Source: Ilumatobacteraceae bacterium (GTDB taxonomy: Bacteria; Actinomycetota; Acidimicrobiia; Acidimicrobiales; Ilumatobacteraceae). Taken from it: 64,000 bases of DNA. Below the pieces are notes generated by a model. It was not told the DNA's origin. It saw nothing but the letters and a program-made list of their open reading frames with translations, and did no database searches. Both the position numbers and the translations under genes were made by a program. The DNA lies in the NCBI GenBank assembly GCA_025463305.1, contig JAOBWK010000075.1, positions 24,095 through 88,094 on the forward strand, read 5' to 3'. Numbering within the stretch: the stretch's first letter is position 1; the number at the start of each line of letters is the position of its first letter. Below, piece after piece: positions 50,309 to 64,000 of this stretch.

Positions 50309-50363
50309 CGCGGACTGGTTGCGATTCGACCGCACAGTCCGGCGGAAATGCAACCAGTCCGCG
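50309..50363. repeat. 14-bp inverted repeat upstream of methyltransferase
   Basis: CGCGGACTGGTTGC (50309-50322) is the exact reverse complement of GCAACCAGTCCGCG (50350-50363), with 27 nt between. It ends 15 nt before the GTG of the methyltransferase. It could be an operator, an RNA hairpin hindering translation, or the end of a mobile repeat. Confidence 0.75.
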
Positions 50364-58164: not shown

Positions 58165-59259
58165 TCACCGGGGGAGCCCGAGTAGACGCTCGGCGACGAT
58201 GTTTCGCTGCACCTGGCTCGTGCCGCCGGCGATCCGCCCGCCGGGTGCCGCCAGCATGCCGGCCGATTCCGGGCCGTCGAGCATCGCCGCCGCGCCGAGC
58301 AGGCCGCCGCGCAGCATGGCCGCGTCGAACATCATCTCGGTGATGCCGAGCTTCATCAGCGAGGCCGCGGTCGACGCGACGGGGCCTTGGCGTTGGCCCA
58401 TCGCCTTGAACGCGTTGCCGCGGCTGAGCAGCACCGCGAGCTGCTGGCGCTGCAGTGCATCGAGCGGGTGATCGGCGCCCAGCCCGGCCATCGCCGCCAG
58501 TCGGCGTTCGAGCCCGATCACGCTCGCGCCGATGTGGCCGCGCTCGTTCGTCAGCACGGCCATGCCGACGCCCCATCCGCCGTGCTCCGGCCCGAGGAGG
58601 TGATCGGCGGGCAGCTCGACGTCGGTGAAGAACACCTCGTCGAACTCGGCCTCGCCCGTCATCTGGCGCAACGGGCGGATCTCGATGCCCGCGAGGTCCA
58701 TCGGGATCAGGAAGAACGAGATGCCCTCGTGCTTGCGCGCGGCTGGATCGGTGCGCGCCATGAGGATGCCCCAGTCGCTGTACCGACCGCCGCTGCACCA
58801 GACCTTCTGCCCGTTGACGATGTACCGGTCGCCGTCGCGCTCCGCACGGGTGGACAGCGCGGCGAGGTCGCTGCCGGCGCCCGGCTCGCTGAACAGCTGG
58901 CACCAGACTCGACTCGCCTCGAGCGTCGGACGCAGGTGCGCGGCCTGCTGTTCCGGTGTGCCGAAGCGCATGATCGACTGGCCGGCCAGCACGAGACCGA
59001 CCATGTTCAGGAACGGCGGCACGCCAACCCTTGCGCAGGCCTCGATCCACGCCGCCTGGTGCGCCGGCGTGAGCCCTCGGCCACCGTGCTCGACCGGCCA
59101 GTGGATGCCGGCGTAGCCGGATGTGTGCAGCAGCTGCTGCCAGGCGATGCCCTGCTCGACGAGGTCCGGTGGGCAGATCGCGCCGTAGTCGCGCGGCGCT
59201 GCTCCGTGGTGCGCCGCCAACCAGTCGACCGCAGCCGAGCGGAACTCGTCGATGTCCAT
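58165..59259 (-). CDS. Acyl-CoA dehydrogenase
   Basis: 364 residues. FAD/substrate blocks are WCQLFSEPGAGSDLAAL, YIVNGQKVWCSGG, GISFFLIPMD, FDEVFFTDVELP and the C-terminal GGTSQVQRNIVAERLLGLPR. The order and GRGLTPAHQAAWIEACAR fit the FadE heterotetramer-type enzymes of cholesterol or long-chain catabolism; a catalytic Glu is not evident at the usual C-terminal position. The start is 5 nt from the SDR stop, so they form one operon. Confidence 0.92.
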   Translation of the reverse strand: MDIDEFRSAAVDWLAAHHGAAPRDYGAICPPDLVEQGIAWQQLLHTSGYAGIHWPVEHGGRGLTPAHQAAWIEACARVGVPPFLNMVGLVLAGQSIMRFGTPEQQAAHLRPTLEASRVWCQLFSEPGAGSDLAALSTRAERDGDRYIVNGQKVWCSGGRYSDWGILMARTDPAARKHEGISFFLIPMDLAGIEIRPLRQMTGEAEFDEVFFTDVELPADHLLGPEHGGWGVGMAVLTNERGHIGASVIGLERRLAAMAGLGADHPLDALQRQQLAVLLSRGNAFKAMGQRQGPVASTAASLMKLGITEMMFDAAMLRGGLLGAAAMLDGPESAGMLAAPGGRIAGGTSQVQRNIVAERLLGLPR

Positions 59260-59264
59260 GGGAC

Positions 59265-60173
59265 CTACTTCATGAAGGGCAGGAAGAGTGCCGTCTCCTC
59301 GCCGAGGTTCGCGGGCACGGCGTAGCCGTTGCGATCGGTGATGGTGGACCAGTTGTCGCGCACGTCCTCCGGGCTGAGCGAGGCGTGGTGGTAGCCCTGG
59401 GTCTCGGCGATGAACACCTCGGCGACGCGGCCGCCGCCGACGCTGAACACGCGGCCCGTCGGCTCGCACTCCTCGCTGGCGAGGTAGGTGACCAACGGCG
59501 AGATGAGGGCCGGATCGAGCTTCTCGCCGAGCGGGCCGAGCAGATCGACCGTCATGCGGGTCAGCGCGAGCGGGGCGATGGCGTTGGCCTTGATGTTGTA
59601 CTTCGCACCCTCGACGGCGAGCACGCGGGTGAAGCCGACGAGGCCCATCTTCGCCGCGCCGTAGTTGGCCTGGCCGAAGTTGCCGAAGATGCCGGCGGCC
59701 GACGACGTGCTGATGACGCGGCCGTAGCCCTGGGCGCGCATGTGCGGCCATGCCGCCTGGGTGACGTTGAACGCGCCCTTCAGGTGCACGGCGAGCACCG
59801 CATCGACCAGATCCGGCGTCATGTTGTGGAACGACTTGTCGCGCAGGATGCCGGCGTTGTTGATGACGATGTCGATCTTGCCGAACGCATCGATCGCGGT
59901 CTGGACGATGGCGGCGCCACCTTCGGGCGTGGAGACGCTGTCGGCATTGGCGACGGCCTCGCCGCCGGCGGCCTTGATCTCGTCGACGACGTGGTCCGCC
60001 GCGCCTTTGTCGCTGCCGCTGCCGTCGACAGCGCCGCCGAGATCGTTGATCACCACGAGCGCGCCCCTCGACGCCATCAGCAGCGCGTGCTGCCGCCCCA
60101 GGCCGCCGCCTGCCCCGGTGATGATCGCTACCTTGCCGTCGAAACCAACCTGTGATGTTTGGGCATCGCTCAT
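59265..60173 (-). CDS. MFE-type 3-hydroxyacyl-CoA dehydrogenase (SDR)
   Basis: 302 residues, matching the dehydrogenase domain of peroxisomal multifunctional enzyme type 2 (HSD17B4). TGAGGGLGRQHALLMASRGA, VVINDLGGAVDGSGSD and NNAGILRDKSFHNM are strongly diagnostic, with YGAAKMGLVGFTR as catalytic Tyr/Lys. ANAIAPLALTRM replaces the usual ANAIAP block. The gene is followed by an acyl-CoA dehydrogenase and preceded by a palindrome at 69 nt. It acts in beta-oxidation of long or steroid side-chain acyl-CoA. ATG at 60173 is set by homology. Confidence 0.92.
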   Translation of the reverse strand: MSDAQTSQVGFDGKVAIITGAGGGLGRQHALLMASRGALVVINDLGGAVDGSGSDKGAADHVVDEIKAAGGEAVANADSVSTPEGGAAIVQTAIDAFGKIDIVINNAGILRDKSFHNMTPDLVDAVLAVHLKGAFNVTQAAWPHMRAQGYGRVISTSSAAGIFGNFGQANYGAAKMGLVGFTRVLAVEGAKYNIKANAIAPLALTRMTVDLLGPLGEKLDPALISPLVTYLASEECEPTGRVFSVGGGRVAEVFIAETQGYHHASLSPEDVRDNWSTITDRNGYAVPANLGEETALFLPFMK

Positions 60174-60241
60174 GGAACAAGAAGCTACCGACGCAGCCCC
60201 GATGCCCACCAACCTCCCGTCCGACGCCCGCAACTTCTCGC

Positions 60242-60293
60242 CGTTCGTGTCACCGCACATCATCAACTTCGATGATGTGCGGTGACATGAACG
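60242..60293. repeat. 52-bp palindrome, copy 1 (downstream of nuclease gene, upstream of SDR)
   Basis: Arms of 23 nt (60242-60264 and 60271-60293) pair fully, with one G-T pair, around the loop AACTTC. The stem core is GTCACCGCACATCATC. The same loop and right arm occur in copy 2. Directly to the right lies AGGTGACGGGCGGGATCA (60295-60312), which includes the stop codon of the nuclease gene and recurs beside copy 2. Confidence 0.92.
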
Positions 60294-60309
60294 AAGGTGA
60301 CGGGCGGGA

Positions 60310-61221
60310 TCACAAGCCGAGGGCCCGGCGGGTCGTGTCGACGGTCGAGGCCGGGTCGTCGACCACCTGGTCGTAGGTGAACTGAAAGCCGCGGAAGCCG
60401 TCGAGCTGGAGCTGGTTCAACCGCTCGGCGTCGCGTCGCATCTGCTCCTTGGTCCGGTGCCAGCGGTAGCCGAGCAGCTCGACGACGACGTCGGTGCCCT
60501 CGAAGTGGCAGTCGACGCGCACGAGGTGGTCGCCGGCTCGGGTGAGCGTCACCTCGGTCTGAGGTGCGGGCAGCCCCGCGGCGGCGATGAGCTCGAGGTA
60601 GCGCCGTTCGAGCCAGCTCGGTCGACCGCCGCTGATCTCCTCGCCCTCCAGCACCTTCACCAGTCGGCGGCAGCCTGCTCGTCCGCTGCCGCGCAGCGCG
60701 ACGATTCGTTGATGGAGGAACAGCTCGGAGCTCCGCCCGTCACGGAACGCCGAGGCGATCGCGACGAGCAACGCGTCGGGATCGGTCGACGCGGCGAGAT
60801 CGATGATCGTCCGGGTCGGGCTGGTGACCGCGAGACCATCGACCACGGCTCGGTCGATGAGCGGCAACGTCGAGCTGGTGTGGATGTGCGCACCGGCGCG
60901 TTGGATGTTGCGCCCGCGAACCACCGTGGCGTGGAACGGCGGACGGAGCACGAACCCGTCGAGCTTGTGGAGCGCCGCTGCCGTCCGATGGGACGCCCAG
61001 CCCTCGCCGATGTCGAGGAGGAGGTCCGACAGATCGCTGCGTACCGAGTGGGGGCTCATCGGGTCTCGGTACGTGTGAGACCCGGCCTTGACGAGGCGGT
61101 CGCTCTGGATCCGACCACGAAGCACGCCGTTCGAGATCTCGGCCTTCGTGGCCTGTGATCGGGTGAACGCACCGTACTGACCTGTCGCGATCGCCGAGAT
61201 CCGGCGGTTGCCTGCAGGCAT
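60310..61221 (-). CDS. AbiEi-like / DUF559 (Vsr-fold-like) nuclease-domain protein
   Basis: 303 residues. The N-terminal half looks like an AbiEi-type winged helix (GQYGAFTRSQATKAEISNGV, RLVKAGSHTYRD, SHRTAAALHKLDG). The C-terminal 80 residues form a DUF559, PD-(D/E)XK/Vsr-like domain: VDCHF (D237), VVVELLGYRWHRT (E248, H255), RRDAERLNQLQLDGFRGFQF. Such proteins are numerous and often solitary in actinobacterial genomes; their role is not known. Here it is in line with lipid genes of unrelated function and is framed by two copies of a 52-bp palindrome. No cognate AbiEii toxin gene is adjacent. Confidence 0.85.
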   Translation of the reverse strand: MPAGNRRISAIATGQYGAFTRSQATKAEISNGVLRGRIQSDRLVKAGSHTYRDPMSPHSVRSDLSDLLLDIGEGWASHRTAAALHKLDGFVLRPPFHATVVRGRNIQRAGAHIHTSSTLPLIDRAVVDGLAVTSPTRTIIDLAASTDPDALLVAIASAFRDGRSSELFLHQRIVALRGSGRAGCRRLVKVLEGEEISGGRPSWLERRYLELIAAAGLPAPQTEVTLTRAGDHLVRVDCHFEGTDVVVELLGYRWHRTKEQMRRDAERLNQLQLDGFRGFQFTYDQVVDDPASTVDTTRRALGL

Positions 61222-61266
61222 GCATCCGGATTCAACCGATGGGCACCCGGGATCGCAACATTTCTG

Positions 61267-61318
61267 CGTTCATGTCACCGCACATCATCAACTTCGATGA
61301 TGTGCGGTGACATGAACG
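61267..61318. repeat. 52-bp palindrome, copy 2 (upstream of nuclease gene, downstream of FadD)
   Basis: Perfect 23-nt arms (61267-61289 and 61296-61318) around the loop AACTTC. It differs from copy 1 by a single base (A for G in the left arm). The shared 18-mer AGGTGACGGGCGGGATCA lies at 61346-61363 and includes the stop codon of the acyl-CoA synthetase gene. Relative to copy 1, 26 extra nt separate palindrome and 18-mer. Confidence 0.92.
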
Positions 61319-61360
61319 AAAGGGCTGGGGGTGGCTCGGGGGCTCAGGTGACGGGCGGGA

Positions 61361-63004
61361 TCAGCGGGTGGGCGGCGCGGTGGCAGACTCCGCGAAGGCC
61401 TTGAGGCGGCGGTAGTCGAGCTTGCCGTTGGCGGCGCGGCCGATGGTGTCGATCTCGAGGACCCGCTTGGGGGCCTTGTACGCGGCGAGGGTGGTCTTGA
61501 CGTGCAGGATCAGTGCCGCTTCGTCGATGGTCGCTCCGTCGGCGGGCTCGACCAGCGCGGTGATGGCTTCACCGAAGCGTTCGTCGGGGAGGCCGACGAC
61601 CGCAGCATCGGCGACGCTCGGGTGGAGCTTCAACGCCTCCTCGACCTCCTCGGGGTAGACCTTCTCGCCGCCGGTGTTGATGCACTGGCTGCCCCGGCCG
61701 AGGAGCTTGACCGTGCCGTCGGCTTCGACCTCGGCGAAGTCGCCGGGGATGCTCCAACGCACGCCCTCGAACGTCACGAAGGTGGAGGCGGACTTCTCCG
61801 GATCCTTGTAGTAGCCGATCGGCGTGCGACCGCGCAGCGCCACCCGGCCGCGCTCGCCACTGCCGGGCGCGACTTCGCGACCGTCGTCGGTGAGCACCTT
61901 GGTGTGCGCGGTGAGCACGAACTTGGCCGTCTGCCCCGCGCCGTCGGCGCTCGTGGTGTTGTTCGCCATCCCGATCGCCTCACTGGAGCCGAGGCTGTCG
62001 ATCATGATCAGCCGCGCGTTGTGGCGCAGCAGGCCGGCCTTGGTCTCCGCCGACCACATCACGCCGCTCGACACGATGACCCGCATCGAGGAGAAGTCCC
62101 ACCGATCCGGCTCCGCGTCGAGGGCACGCAGGATCGGCTTGGCGAACGCGTCACCGACGATCGACATGCTGTTCACCCGATGCGTCTGCACCGTGTCGAG
62201 CAGCTCGATCGGATCGAAGCTGCGGCCCGTCATCGTCACCACCGCGCCGGCGAGGGCGAGGTTCCACATCGCGTTGAACGCGCCGGTGCCGTGCATCAGC
62301 GGTGCGGCGGGGAGGTTGCGTGGACCCGGCTTGGTGACCCGGGCATCCATCGCGTCCCAGCCCGGCACCGTCGGCAACGGCTGACGCGACGCCGCGTCGA
62401 GGCTGCCGATCACGTCGTCCTGACGCCACATCACGCCCTTCGGCATGCCCGTGGTGCCACCCGTGTAGAGCATGTAGAGATCGTCGGGGGAACGGCCCCA
62501 TGGCGGCACGACGCGCCCGGTGCCGGATGTCTCCGCGTACGCGGCGGCGACCTCGTAGTCGACCGCCCAGTCCGGGCACGCACCCGTGCCGTCGTCCACC
62601 CAGATCCACGTGCGGATCGCCGGCAACCGCTCGCGCAGCGCGGCACAGCGATCGACGAACGTGCCGTGGAAGATCACCCCGACCGCGTCCGCGTTGTCCC
62701 ACAGGTACACGATCTCGTCGTCGGTGTACCGGTAGTTGGTGTTCACCGGAACGAGCGCGGCCTTGTACAACCCGAACATGCTCTCCAGGTACTCCGGCGC
62801 GTTGTACAGGTAGTGGGCCACCTTGTCCTGATGCACGACACCGGCCGCCAGGAACGTCGCCGCGATGCCGTCCGCGCGCCGATCGAACTCGCGCCACGTG
62901 AACGAACGATCGCCCGAGATCTGCACCGTCGCGTCCGGGAACCGGTCGGCCTGGTGCTCCCAGATCTCCGCGAAGTTCCAACCTGCCGTCTGCTCCGTGG
63001 CCAT
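61361..63004 (-). CDS. Acyl-CoA synthetase (AMP-forming, FadD type)
   Basis: 547 residues. The AMP-binding P-loop is YMLYTGGTTGMPKGVMWR, A5-like DSLGSSEA, A7 VRWSIPGDFAEVE with the adenylate Asp, and the hinge with LLGRGSQCINTGGEKVYPEE. The terminal catalytic Lys is in GRAANGKLDYRRLK. GIGYYKDPEKSA appears as PIGYYKDPEKSA. It resembles actinobacterial FadD enzymes activating long or steroid side-chain fatty acids. ATG at 63004 is set by homology (WNFAEIWEHQADRFPD). It is divergent from the next acyl-CoA dehydrogenase. Confidence 0.93.
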   Translation of the reverse strand: MATEQTAGWNFAEIWEHQADRFPDATVQISGDRSFTWREFDRRADGIAATFLAAGVVHQDKVAHYLYNAPEYLESMFGLYKAALVPVNTNYRYTDDEIVYLWDNADAVGVIFHGTFVDRCAALRERLPAIRTWIWVDDGTGACPDWAVDYEVAAAYAETSGTGRVVPPWGRSPDDLYMLYTGGTTGMPKGVMWRQDDVIGSLDAASRQPLPTVPGWDAMDARVTKPGPRNLPAAPLMHGTGAFNAMWNLALAGAVVTMTGRSFDPIELLDTVQTHRVNSMSIVGDAFAKPILRALDAEPDRWDFSSMRVIVSSGVMWSAETKAGLLRHNARLIMIDSLGSSEAIGMANNTTSADGAGQTAKFVLTAHTKVLTDDGREVAPGSGERGRVALRGRTPIGYYKDPEKSASTFVTFEGVRWSIPGDFAEVEADGTVKLLGRGSQCINTGGEKVYPEEVEEALKLHPSVADAAVVGLPDERFGEAITALVEPADGATIDEAALILHVKTTLAAYKAPKRVLEIDTIGRAANGKLDYRRLKAFAESATAPPTR

Positions 63005-63065
63005 GGGTTGGACACTACGCGTCGGCGCGGACCAGGGCTGCGCCGATGAGTCGTAGTGTCCGGGC

Positions 63066-64000
63066 ATGGACTTCCTGCTGCCGGCCGACGACGACCCGAT
63101 GCGTCACGCAGTGCGCGAGTGGCTGGCCGAGCATCCGCACCCGACGGGTGCCGAGCTGGCCGAAGCCGGGTACGTCGCGCCGCACTGGCCGGCGCCGTGG
63201 GGGCGCGGAGCGGATCCCATCGAGCAGCTGGTGATCGACGACGAGCTGGTCGCCGCCGGGGTGCGCCGCCCGATCAACCCGATCGGCATCGGCTGGGCCG
63301 GGCCGACGCTGCTGTACGCGGGCACCGATGCGCAGAAGGACCGCTACCTGACGCCGCTGCTCAGTGGCGCCGAGTTCTGGTGCCAGCTGTTCAGCGAGCC
63401 GAACAGCGGTAGCGACCTCGCCAGCCTCGCGACCTCCGCGGTCCGCGACGGCGACGAGTTCGTCATCAACGGCCAGAAGATCTGGACCAGTGGCGCGCAG
63501 TTCGCGCAGTTCGGCATCCTCATCGCGCGCACCGATCCGACGGTGGCCAAGCACCGTGGCATCTCGTACTTCATCTGCCCGATGGACGTGCCGGGCATCG
63601 AGGTCCGCACCATCACCGAGATGACCGGCGGGCACACGTTCAACGAGGTGTTCTTCACGGACGTGCGCATCCCGGCTGCGAACCTGGTCGGCGATCTCAA
63701 CGACGGTTGGCGACTCGCCAAGGTCACGCTCGGCAACGAGCGGGTGTCCCTCTCGACCGGCGGGGTGCTGTGGGGCGGTGGTCCGACGGCGCTGCAGATG
63801 CTGGATGCAGTGCGGGCGCACGGTCCGGTGACCGACCCGTCGATGCGCCAGCGGCTCGCCGCGATCCACACCGAGCACGTCCTGCTCGACCTCATCCGGC
63901 TGCGCACGCTCTCGGCGAAGCTGCGCGGCGAGCAGCCGGGCCCGGAAGCCAGCATCCGCAAGATCATGGCCGACGAGCACGGCCAGCACGTGATGGCCGC
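63066..64000 (+). CDS. Acyl-CoA dehydrogenase (3' end outside window)
   Basis: The first 311 residues are visible. Blocks are WCQLFSEPNSGSDLASLA, FVINGQKIWTSGAQFAQFG, GISYFICPMDVPGIEVR, HTFNEVFFTDVRIP and LVGDLNDGWRLAKVTLGNER. It is a paralogue of the enzyme at 58.2 kb but in the opposite orientation, separated from fadD by 61 bp of divergent control region. Paired FadE subunits often form heterotetramers in steroid side-chain oxidation; whether these two interact is unknown. Confidence 0.93.
   Translation, partial: MDFLLPADDDPMRHAVREWLAEHPHPTGAELAEAGYVAPHWPAPWGRGADPIEQLVIDDELVAAGVRRPINPIGIGWAGPTLLYAGTDAQKDRYLTPLLSGAEFWCQLFSEPNSGSDLASLATSAVRDGDEFVINGQKIWTSGAQFAQFGILIARTDPTVAKHRGISYFICPMDVPGIEVRTITEMTGGHTFNEVFFTDVRIPAANLVGDLNDGWRLAKVTLGNERVSLSTGGVLWGGGPTALQMLDAVRAHGPVTDPSMRQRLAAIHTEHVLLDLIRLRTLSAKLRGEQPGPEASIRKIMADEHGQHVMA

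What the first reader, a model, noticed from the sequence alone, without database searches (positions are those of the whole stretch)
60229..61363. Solitary AbiEi/DUF559 nuclease gene framed by two near-identical palindromes plus a shared 18-mer: candidate mobile cassette
Seen: two 52-bp palindromes (23-bp arms, loop AACTTC) differ by one base and sit on both sides of one gene inside a lipid-oxidation gene run. Next to each lies AGGTGACGGGCGGGATCA, which in both cases contains the stop codon of the upstream gene. On the other side, weaker similarity continues (CGCAAC then TTCT). So the whole spacer appears duplicated around the nuclease gene. Known: DUF559 belongs to the PD-(D/E)XK/Vsr-like group, which includes homing-type enzymes. 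Inference: the gene plus one spacer copy inserted by recombination at a palindromic spacer, perhaps by a homing-like route, leaving the FadD, SDR and FadE genes intact.
Basis: partly seen in the sequence, partly recalled or inferred. Interest (0 to 1): 0.85.

Follow-up and report, generated by a model that had tools for sequence, protein, structure and literature searches.

The report
Nuclease genes bracketed by private palindromes
A gene for a probable DNA-cutting enzyme in an actinobacterium sits between two copies of a 52-letter palindrome, and many of its relatives are bracketed by palindromes of their own that can also be found alone elsewhere in the genome, which looks like an undescribed repeat-plus-enzyme system that resembles, but is not related to, the known REP/RAYT system.

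Summary
In detail: two 52-bp palindromes (23-bp arms, loop AACTTC) bracket one 303-aa gene. The protein is modelled as an AbiEi-like DNA-binding part joined to a Vsr/homing-endonuclease-like part with invariant D237, E248 and H255. It is not a one-off. In 57 homologue loci from 17 family genomes, strong palindromes are about 62 times denser near the nuclease gene than elsewhere in the same loci (43 in 23.8 kb against 5 in 171.9 kb), at near-constant distances, with sequences that differ between paralogues. In 30 of 52 loci the two flanks match better than 99% of control pairs. The four types searched by pattern all have solo copies and were each found in only one to three of the genomes searched; one of those genomes (G001) has 27 copies but no close cognate gene in its assembly. 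Between two related genomes one palindrome-gene-palindrome cassette is inverted in a collinear locus. fadD-SDR spacers show occupied, solo-palindrome and empty states. Five of six genomes show no Y1 transposase match. Best reading: a REP/RAYT-like system with a non-homologous enzyme. Binding, cutting and movement are inferred. The paper searches listed nothing that links this family to palindromic repeats.

The parts
60242..60293 (.). downstream palindrome (23-bp arms, one mismatch, loop AACTTC); 16 bases lie between it and the nuclease stop codon
60295..60312 (.). 18-mer copy 1, holds the nuclease stop codon; not seen in relatives
60310..61221 (-). 303-aa protein: AbiEi-like part (about 3-195) plus Vsr/I-Bth0305I-like part (about 200-303; D237, E248, H255 invariant in 35 aligned sequences)
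61222..61266 (-). 45-bp leader between upstream palindrome and ATG; in homologues 17 of 23 upstream palindromes end 40-54 bp before the start
61267..61318 (.). upstream palindrome (23-bp arms, perfect, loop AACTTC)
61346..61363 (.). 18-mer copy 2, holds the fadD stop codon
59265..60173 (-). flanking SDR dehydrogenase (PF00106); the listed ORF reaches 60266, the ATG at 60173 is our choice
61361..63067 (-). flanking AMP-binding acyl-CoA ligase (FadD-like, PF00501)

Best explanation
The window holds one member of a REP-like repeat system. Many AbiEi/Vsr-like nuclease genes are bracketed by two copies of a 40-55 bp palindrome of their own type, and for the types searched that palindrome also exists as solo copies elsewhere in the genome. 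Shown: the bracketing, the differing types, the dispersal limited to few genomes, one cassette inversion, and variable occupancy of one spacer. Inferred: the AbiEi-like part binds the palindrome arms, about one monomer per arm; the Vsr-like part nicks or cuts there; repair of that break copies or converts palindromes, and recombination between the two flanking copies can flip the gene. The gene itself seems mostly vertically inherited, as reported for RAYT genes.
For: Enrichment: 43 palindromes in 23.8 kb near the gene against 5 in 171.9 kb elsewhere (57 loci), with near-constant spacing. Own flanks match above the 99th percentile of cross-locus pairs in 36 of 52 loci, and above the 99th percentile (26) of 703 non-nuclease pairs in 30 of 52. 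Dispersal at up to 3 mismatches: type A in 3 of 221 family genomes with 27, 5 and 2 copies; type B 11 in G001, one weak match in 12 other genomes; type C 9 in G218 and 5 in G002, none in 11 others; G113 type 9 in G113, none in 6 others. Cassette inverted between G218 and G002. A solo palindrome of G196's own nuclease type lies in the fadD-SDR spacer, which is empty in G219-G221. AbiEi fold and homing/Vsr fold. AbiEi binds 23-bp inverted repeats (PMC7319586 passages), the arm length here. No Y1 match in 5 of 6 genomes.
Against: No binding, cutting or movement was tested. No clean solo insertion was found: one G218 solo site has a different palindrome in G002, and one G001 site faces two whole extra genes in G218 and G002. 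Type A reaches 27 copies in G001, where no close cognate gene was found (best 56%); the fadD-SDR locus was not found there either. 22 of 52 family loci and 20 of 27 phylum-wide loci do not pass the stricter flank threshold. Only one inversion was seen, and plain homologous recombination could explain it. Covariation in type A is modest.
Confidence: 0.55

Rival explanations
1. Operator model: the palindromes are binding sites of an autorepressor or regulator of the AbiEi kind, and the solo copies are a regulon. The nuclease does not move anything.
For: AbiEi binds two 23-bp inverted repeats 3 bp apart in its promoter, about 49 bp in all, and Rv2827c binds similar pairs (PMC7319586 passages); this fits the size of these palindromes. 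The upstream palindrome sits at a near-constant distance from the start. Type A copies keep pairing through some two-sided changes.
Against: A copy also sits at the stop codon in many loci, which an operator does not need. Of 29 solo copies placed between predicted genes only 2 are in divergent spacers and 9 in convergent ones. It does not predict the attached nuclease part or the cassette inversion.
Confidence: 0.23
2. Homing cassette in the strict sense: the gene plus one palindrome inserts into pre-existing solo palindromes; the palindromes themselves arose otherwise.
For: Nuclease part resembles I-Bth0305I. Occupied, solo and empty states occur at one spacer. Two like flanks are expected from insertion into a copy.
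Against: No pair of genomes was found with the same solo palindrome empty in one and filled in the other. In G218 only one gene of the window's type was seen (79%; the next match is 55%), against five type A palindromes. No match of the protein in the plasmid or phage records.
Confidence: 0.12
3. Hairpin insulator: the palindromes are terminators or mRNA hairpins that shield a toxic nuclease gene from read-through, and solo copies are ordinary terminators.
For: Stable hairpins. Solo copies lie mostly between genes, often close to gene ends.
Against: The scan found no T-run terminator-like site in 59200-62500. A generic terminator would not differ between paralogues yet match on the two sides of one gene. 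Elsewhere in the same loci such palindromes are rare (5 in 171.9 kb).
Confidence: 0.07
4. Passive repeats: the palindromes were duplicated by chance around this gene and spread by an unrelated transposase.
For: Solo type A copies exist in G001 without a close cognate gene in the assembly.
Against: The bracketing recurs with different palindromes around many paralogues. No Y1 match in 5 of 6 genomes; other transposases were not searched.
Confidence: 0.03

Closest known systems
REP/REPIN and RAYT (REPtrons)
   Same: gene bracketed by palindromes, each gene with its own palindrome type, scattered further copies, gene single-copy per type (PMC3116915 and PMC3733652, passages)
   Different: enzyme is an AbiEi-Vsr-like protein, not a Y1 HUH transposase; unit is one near-perfect 40-55 bp palindrome; five of six genomes have no Y1 match
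Homing endonuclease I-Bth0305I and Vsr endonuclease
   Same: fold of the last 100 or so residues, with invariant acidic and histidine residues
   Different: gene lies between chromosomal genes and carries an AbiEi-like part; introns and inteins were not looked for; homing not shown
AbiE type IV toxin-antitoxin antitoxin AbiEi / Rv2827c
   Same: N-terminal fold, PADLOC AbiEi models, 23-bp inverted repeats upstream
   Different: fused to a nuclease-like part; neighbours are FadD and SDR genes
CGTC-tagged REPs, reported to lack a dedicated transposase (PMC3733652, passages)
   Same: short palindromic repeats without a RAYT
   Different: reported in other lineages; whether a DUF559-type gene accompanies them was not tested

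Membership tests
REP/RAYT | gene flanked by the palindrome, with solo copies elsewhere in the genome | tested here: met
   for the window's own type in G218. The window's own genome is not held
REP/RAYT | associated protein is a Y1 (PF01797) HUH transposase | tested here: not met
   no Y1 match in Pfam; fold is AbiEi plus Vsr-like; no PF01797 match in 5 of 6 genomes
Homing endonuclease | homing-type nuclease fold with conserved acidic residues | tested here: met
   (fold and conservation only, not activity)
Homing endonuclease | gene copied into an empty allele of the same site | tested here: inconclusive
   occupied, solo and empty spacers seen but no matching filled/empty pair
AbiE toxin-antitoxin | AbiEi-like DNA-binding part | tested here: met
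   (similarity; binding not tested)
AbiE toxin-antitoxin | adjacent AbiEii (DUF1814) toxin gene | tested here: not met
   the two neighbours are FadD-like and SDR
Intrinsic terminator | GC-rich stem followed by a T run | tested here: not met
   0 sites in 59200-62500

The most novel reading that the evidence does not exclude
A second, independently evolved class of REP-like mobile palindromes in Actinomycetota, whose mobiliser is an AbiEi-domain, homing-type (Vsr-like) nuclease instead of a HUH transposase. Each paralogue recognises its private palindrome, converts and spreads copies of it, and can flip its own gene between the two flanking copies.
Probability: 0.4. Interest if true: 0.9.

Novelty: categorically new. 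Interest (0 to 1): 0.82.

Why it matters
If true, mobile palindromes need not depend on HUH transposases, and a common 'orphan AbiEi / DUF559' protein family (737 homologues at E 0.001 for this one query among the 7998 candidates scored) gains a testable role. It would offer matched protein-palindrome pairs in which specificity has diverged many times, so recognition and mechanism can be read from swaps between paralogues. It also gives a concrete candidate to look for beside REP families reported to have no transposase (PMC3733652).

Tried and rejected
Rfam: weak microRNA-like hits over both palindromes, all far below gathering scores; hairpin artefacts. NCBIfam: no family up to E 10. DUF559 (PF04480) is below its Pfam cut-off, so the nuclease assignment rests on fold and conservation.

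Hunt for a clean solo insertion: the G218 solo copy L102 has a different, largely self-complementary palindrome at the same place in G002. The G001 copy L014 faces two extra genes and no palindrome in G218 and G002. L113/L109 share a position, but about 440 bp beside it are found in only one of the two.

Nuclease versus palindrome co-divergence (27 loci): Pearson 0.44, 0 of 2000 permutations as high; Spearman 0.24, 3 of 2000; two orthologous pairs carry much of it, so it is not main evidence. Covariation in 21 type A copies (16 distinct): covariation score reached by 3 of 500 shuffles and two-sided cells by 7 of 500, but pairs with a two-sided change by 179 of 500 and further pair types by all 500.

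G113's nuclease beside FadD was first taken as the orthologue; the tree puts it in another clade with moderate support, so it may be a separate arrival. The exact type A palindrome gave no match in viral contigs; the protein gave none in plasmids or phages. Nine paper searches listed no paper that, by title and abstract, joins DUF559 or this gene family with palindromic repeats; two searches showed only part of their 18 hits each, the library is open-access papers only, and only three papers were opened (passages).

Rows dropped: of 60 nuclease loci (L030-L089), L051 (same place as L055), L087 and L089 (short partial matches) were left out, leaving 57; 5 more lacked 110 bp on both sides (52). 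One search read 28 loci, 27 with both flanks. In one search, 2 of 40 solo loci could not be placed, and only 12 of G001's 27 type A copies had been fetched. The 17 genomes were chosen by me from the 221, by size. The three pattern searches were for types I chose.

Full report
WHAT IS THERE. Two 52-bp palindromes (60242-60293 and 61267-61318; 23-bp arms; loop AACTTC; one base apart) bracket a minus-strand gene, 60310-61221. No further copy of the core occurs in the window with up to 3 mismatches, and shuffles give none. The shared 18-mer is real but is not in register with the palindromes (1 base between on one side, 27 on the other) and has no exact match in the 208 loci fetched.

THE PALINDROME ELSEWHERE. 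A scan of the genome collection for the exact arms found 9 stretches: 8 in one actinobacterial MAG and 1 in an Ilumatobacteraceae MAG. The DNA held for those nine loci shows no nuclease match. Among 221 family genomes, 3 hold the type with up to 3 mismatches: G001 with 27 copies, G218 with 5 and G002 with 2. But in G218 the orthologous SDR-nuclease-FadD locus (nuclease 79% identical) has both palindromes at the same places. Both G218 copies share an A-T in place of G-C at one arm position and loop AACGTC, against G-C and AACTTC in both window copies. In G002 the gene (80%, beside the SDR gene) has the downstream copy; its contig ends inside the gene.

A GENERAL RULE. Homologues were collected from 3 genomes and from the 14 of 17 further family genomes that had a match at E 1e-8; I had chosen those 17 by size. 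In 57 loci, palindromes of score 12 or more number 43 within 220 bp of the gene ends (23.8 kb) and 5 in the other 171.9 kb, which is largely coding. Of 23 upstream ones, 17 end 40-54 bp before the start codon; of 20 downstream ones, 16 begin between -11 and +25 of the stop codon. The sequence differs between paralogues but tends to be alike on the two sides of one gene. Own-pair similarity averages 29.7 against 12.4 for cross-locus pairs; it exceeds their 99th percentile (21) in 36 of 52 loci and ranks first in 38 of 52. A stricter control, 703 pairs of non-nuclease stretches from the window and contigs of G001 and G218, averages 16 with a 99th percentile of 26 and a maximum of 32; 30 of 52 own pairs exceed 26 and 21 exceed 32. 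Across the phylum (80 genomes, 21 with matches, G218 among them) the signal is weaker: 10 of 27 loci above the cross-locus 99th percentile, 7 of 27 above 26, 9 of 27 counting either strand; and 7 palindromes in 12.0 kb near the gene against 5 in 89.2 kb elsewhere (28 loci). One distant locus, L154, has 48-50 bp palindromes on both sides, the upstream one again ending 45 bp before the start. The other loci show no clear bracket.

DISPERSAL IS LIMITED TO FEW GENOMES. Type B (L056): 11 copies in G001, 2 of them flanking its gene; among 12 other genomes one weak match. Type C (L037/L038): 9 in G218 and 5 in G002, two in each flanking the gene; none in 11 others. These are lower bounds: BLAST later showed at least two more type C-like places in G002. 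The G113 type: 9 copies, two on each side of its gene and five elsewhere; none in 6 others. Type A is the exception to strict pairing: G001 has most copies, yet its best nuclease match is 56%, and its assembly lacks the fadD-SDR locus. Of 38 solo copies placed against genes predicted by a simple script, 29 lie between genes (9 convergent, 18 in line, 2 divergent), 3 inside a predicted gene and 6 at contig edges.

SIGNS OF RECOMBINATION. The type C locus is collinear between G218 and G002 outside the cassette (84-87% identity), but the stretch from palindrome to palindrome (about 1049 bp) aligns in inverted orientation only. The fadD-SDR spacer shows several states: gene with two palindromes (window, G218; G002 in part); in G196 a solo palindrome of that genome's own nuclease type, beside an acetyltransferase-like ORF (named by eye), with the nuclease gene on another contig; no gene and no palindrome seen in G219, G220 and G221; and, in the more distant G113, a nuclease of another clade beside FadD with tandem palindromes of its own type, the SDR gene lying 4 kb away. 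At another site G218 and G002 carry different, largely self-complementary palindromes at the same place.

MECHANISM. AbiEi binds two 23-bp inverted repeats separated by 3 bp in its promoter, and Rv2827c binds comparable repeats (PMC7319586; passages, abstract passages included). The arms here are 23 bp with a 6-bp centre. I therefore infer that the AbiEi-like part reads the arms and the Vsr-like part acts at the palindrome, as duplex or as extruded hairpin. A break there, repaired from another copy, would convert or spread palindromes; recombination between the flanking copies would flip the gene. None of these steps is shown. The main rival is a pure operator model. It explains the size of the palindrome and the upstream copy well, but not the copy at the stop codon, the inversion, or the shortage of solo copies in divergent spacers.

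COMPARISON. REP/RAYT systems have a similar architecture (PMC3116915 and PMC3733652; passages), so this works like them. It is not a member: the protein is not a Y1 transposase, and five of six genomes searched have no PF01797 match; G113 has five (four over cut-off), none near its nuclease. It is not an AbiE operon, because the neighbours are FadD-like and SDR genes. Strict homing is open. The exact palindrome was not found in viral contigs, nor the protein in plasmid or phage records. Nine paper searches listed no report of this pairing; most hits were judged by listing, and subscription papers and preprints are not covered. I rate it categorically new as a protein-repeat pairing, with the caution that its function is inferred.

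LIMITS. Absence of a gene from such an assembly is weak evidence. Start codons were chosen by script.

Noticed in passing
window 50309-50363: An imperfect 55-bp palindrome (CGCGGACTGGTTGC ends) of another sequence, the only other one of score 12 or more in the window; possibly a solo copy of another type.
   Followed up: no
L030-L089, the 45 bp before the start codon: By eye, two recurring leader motifs in distant paralogues: TGTCACACCC followed by a GCACGAT-like box, and TTTTCC followed by GAAGCACTCAGTG; possible promoters or operators of the family.
   Followed up: no
L144 5130-6440 (G113): Tandem palindromes, two on each side of the nuclease gene.
   Followed up: partly
L055 1135-2183 (G218:C374): A nuclease gene whose match is split between two reading frames, still bracketed by palindromes of one type; looks like a decayed cassette.
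   Followed up: no
L111 1501-1545 (G002:C280): A solo palindrome whose left arm resembles type C and whose right arm resembles the L035 type, as if arms had been exchanged (by eye).
   Followed up: no
L168, L171: In two distant actinobacterial loci the flanks match as inverted rather than direct copies (scores 42 and 77 on the opposite strand).
   Followed up: no
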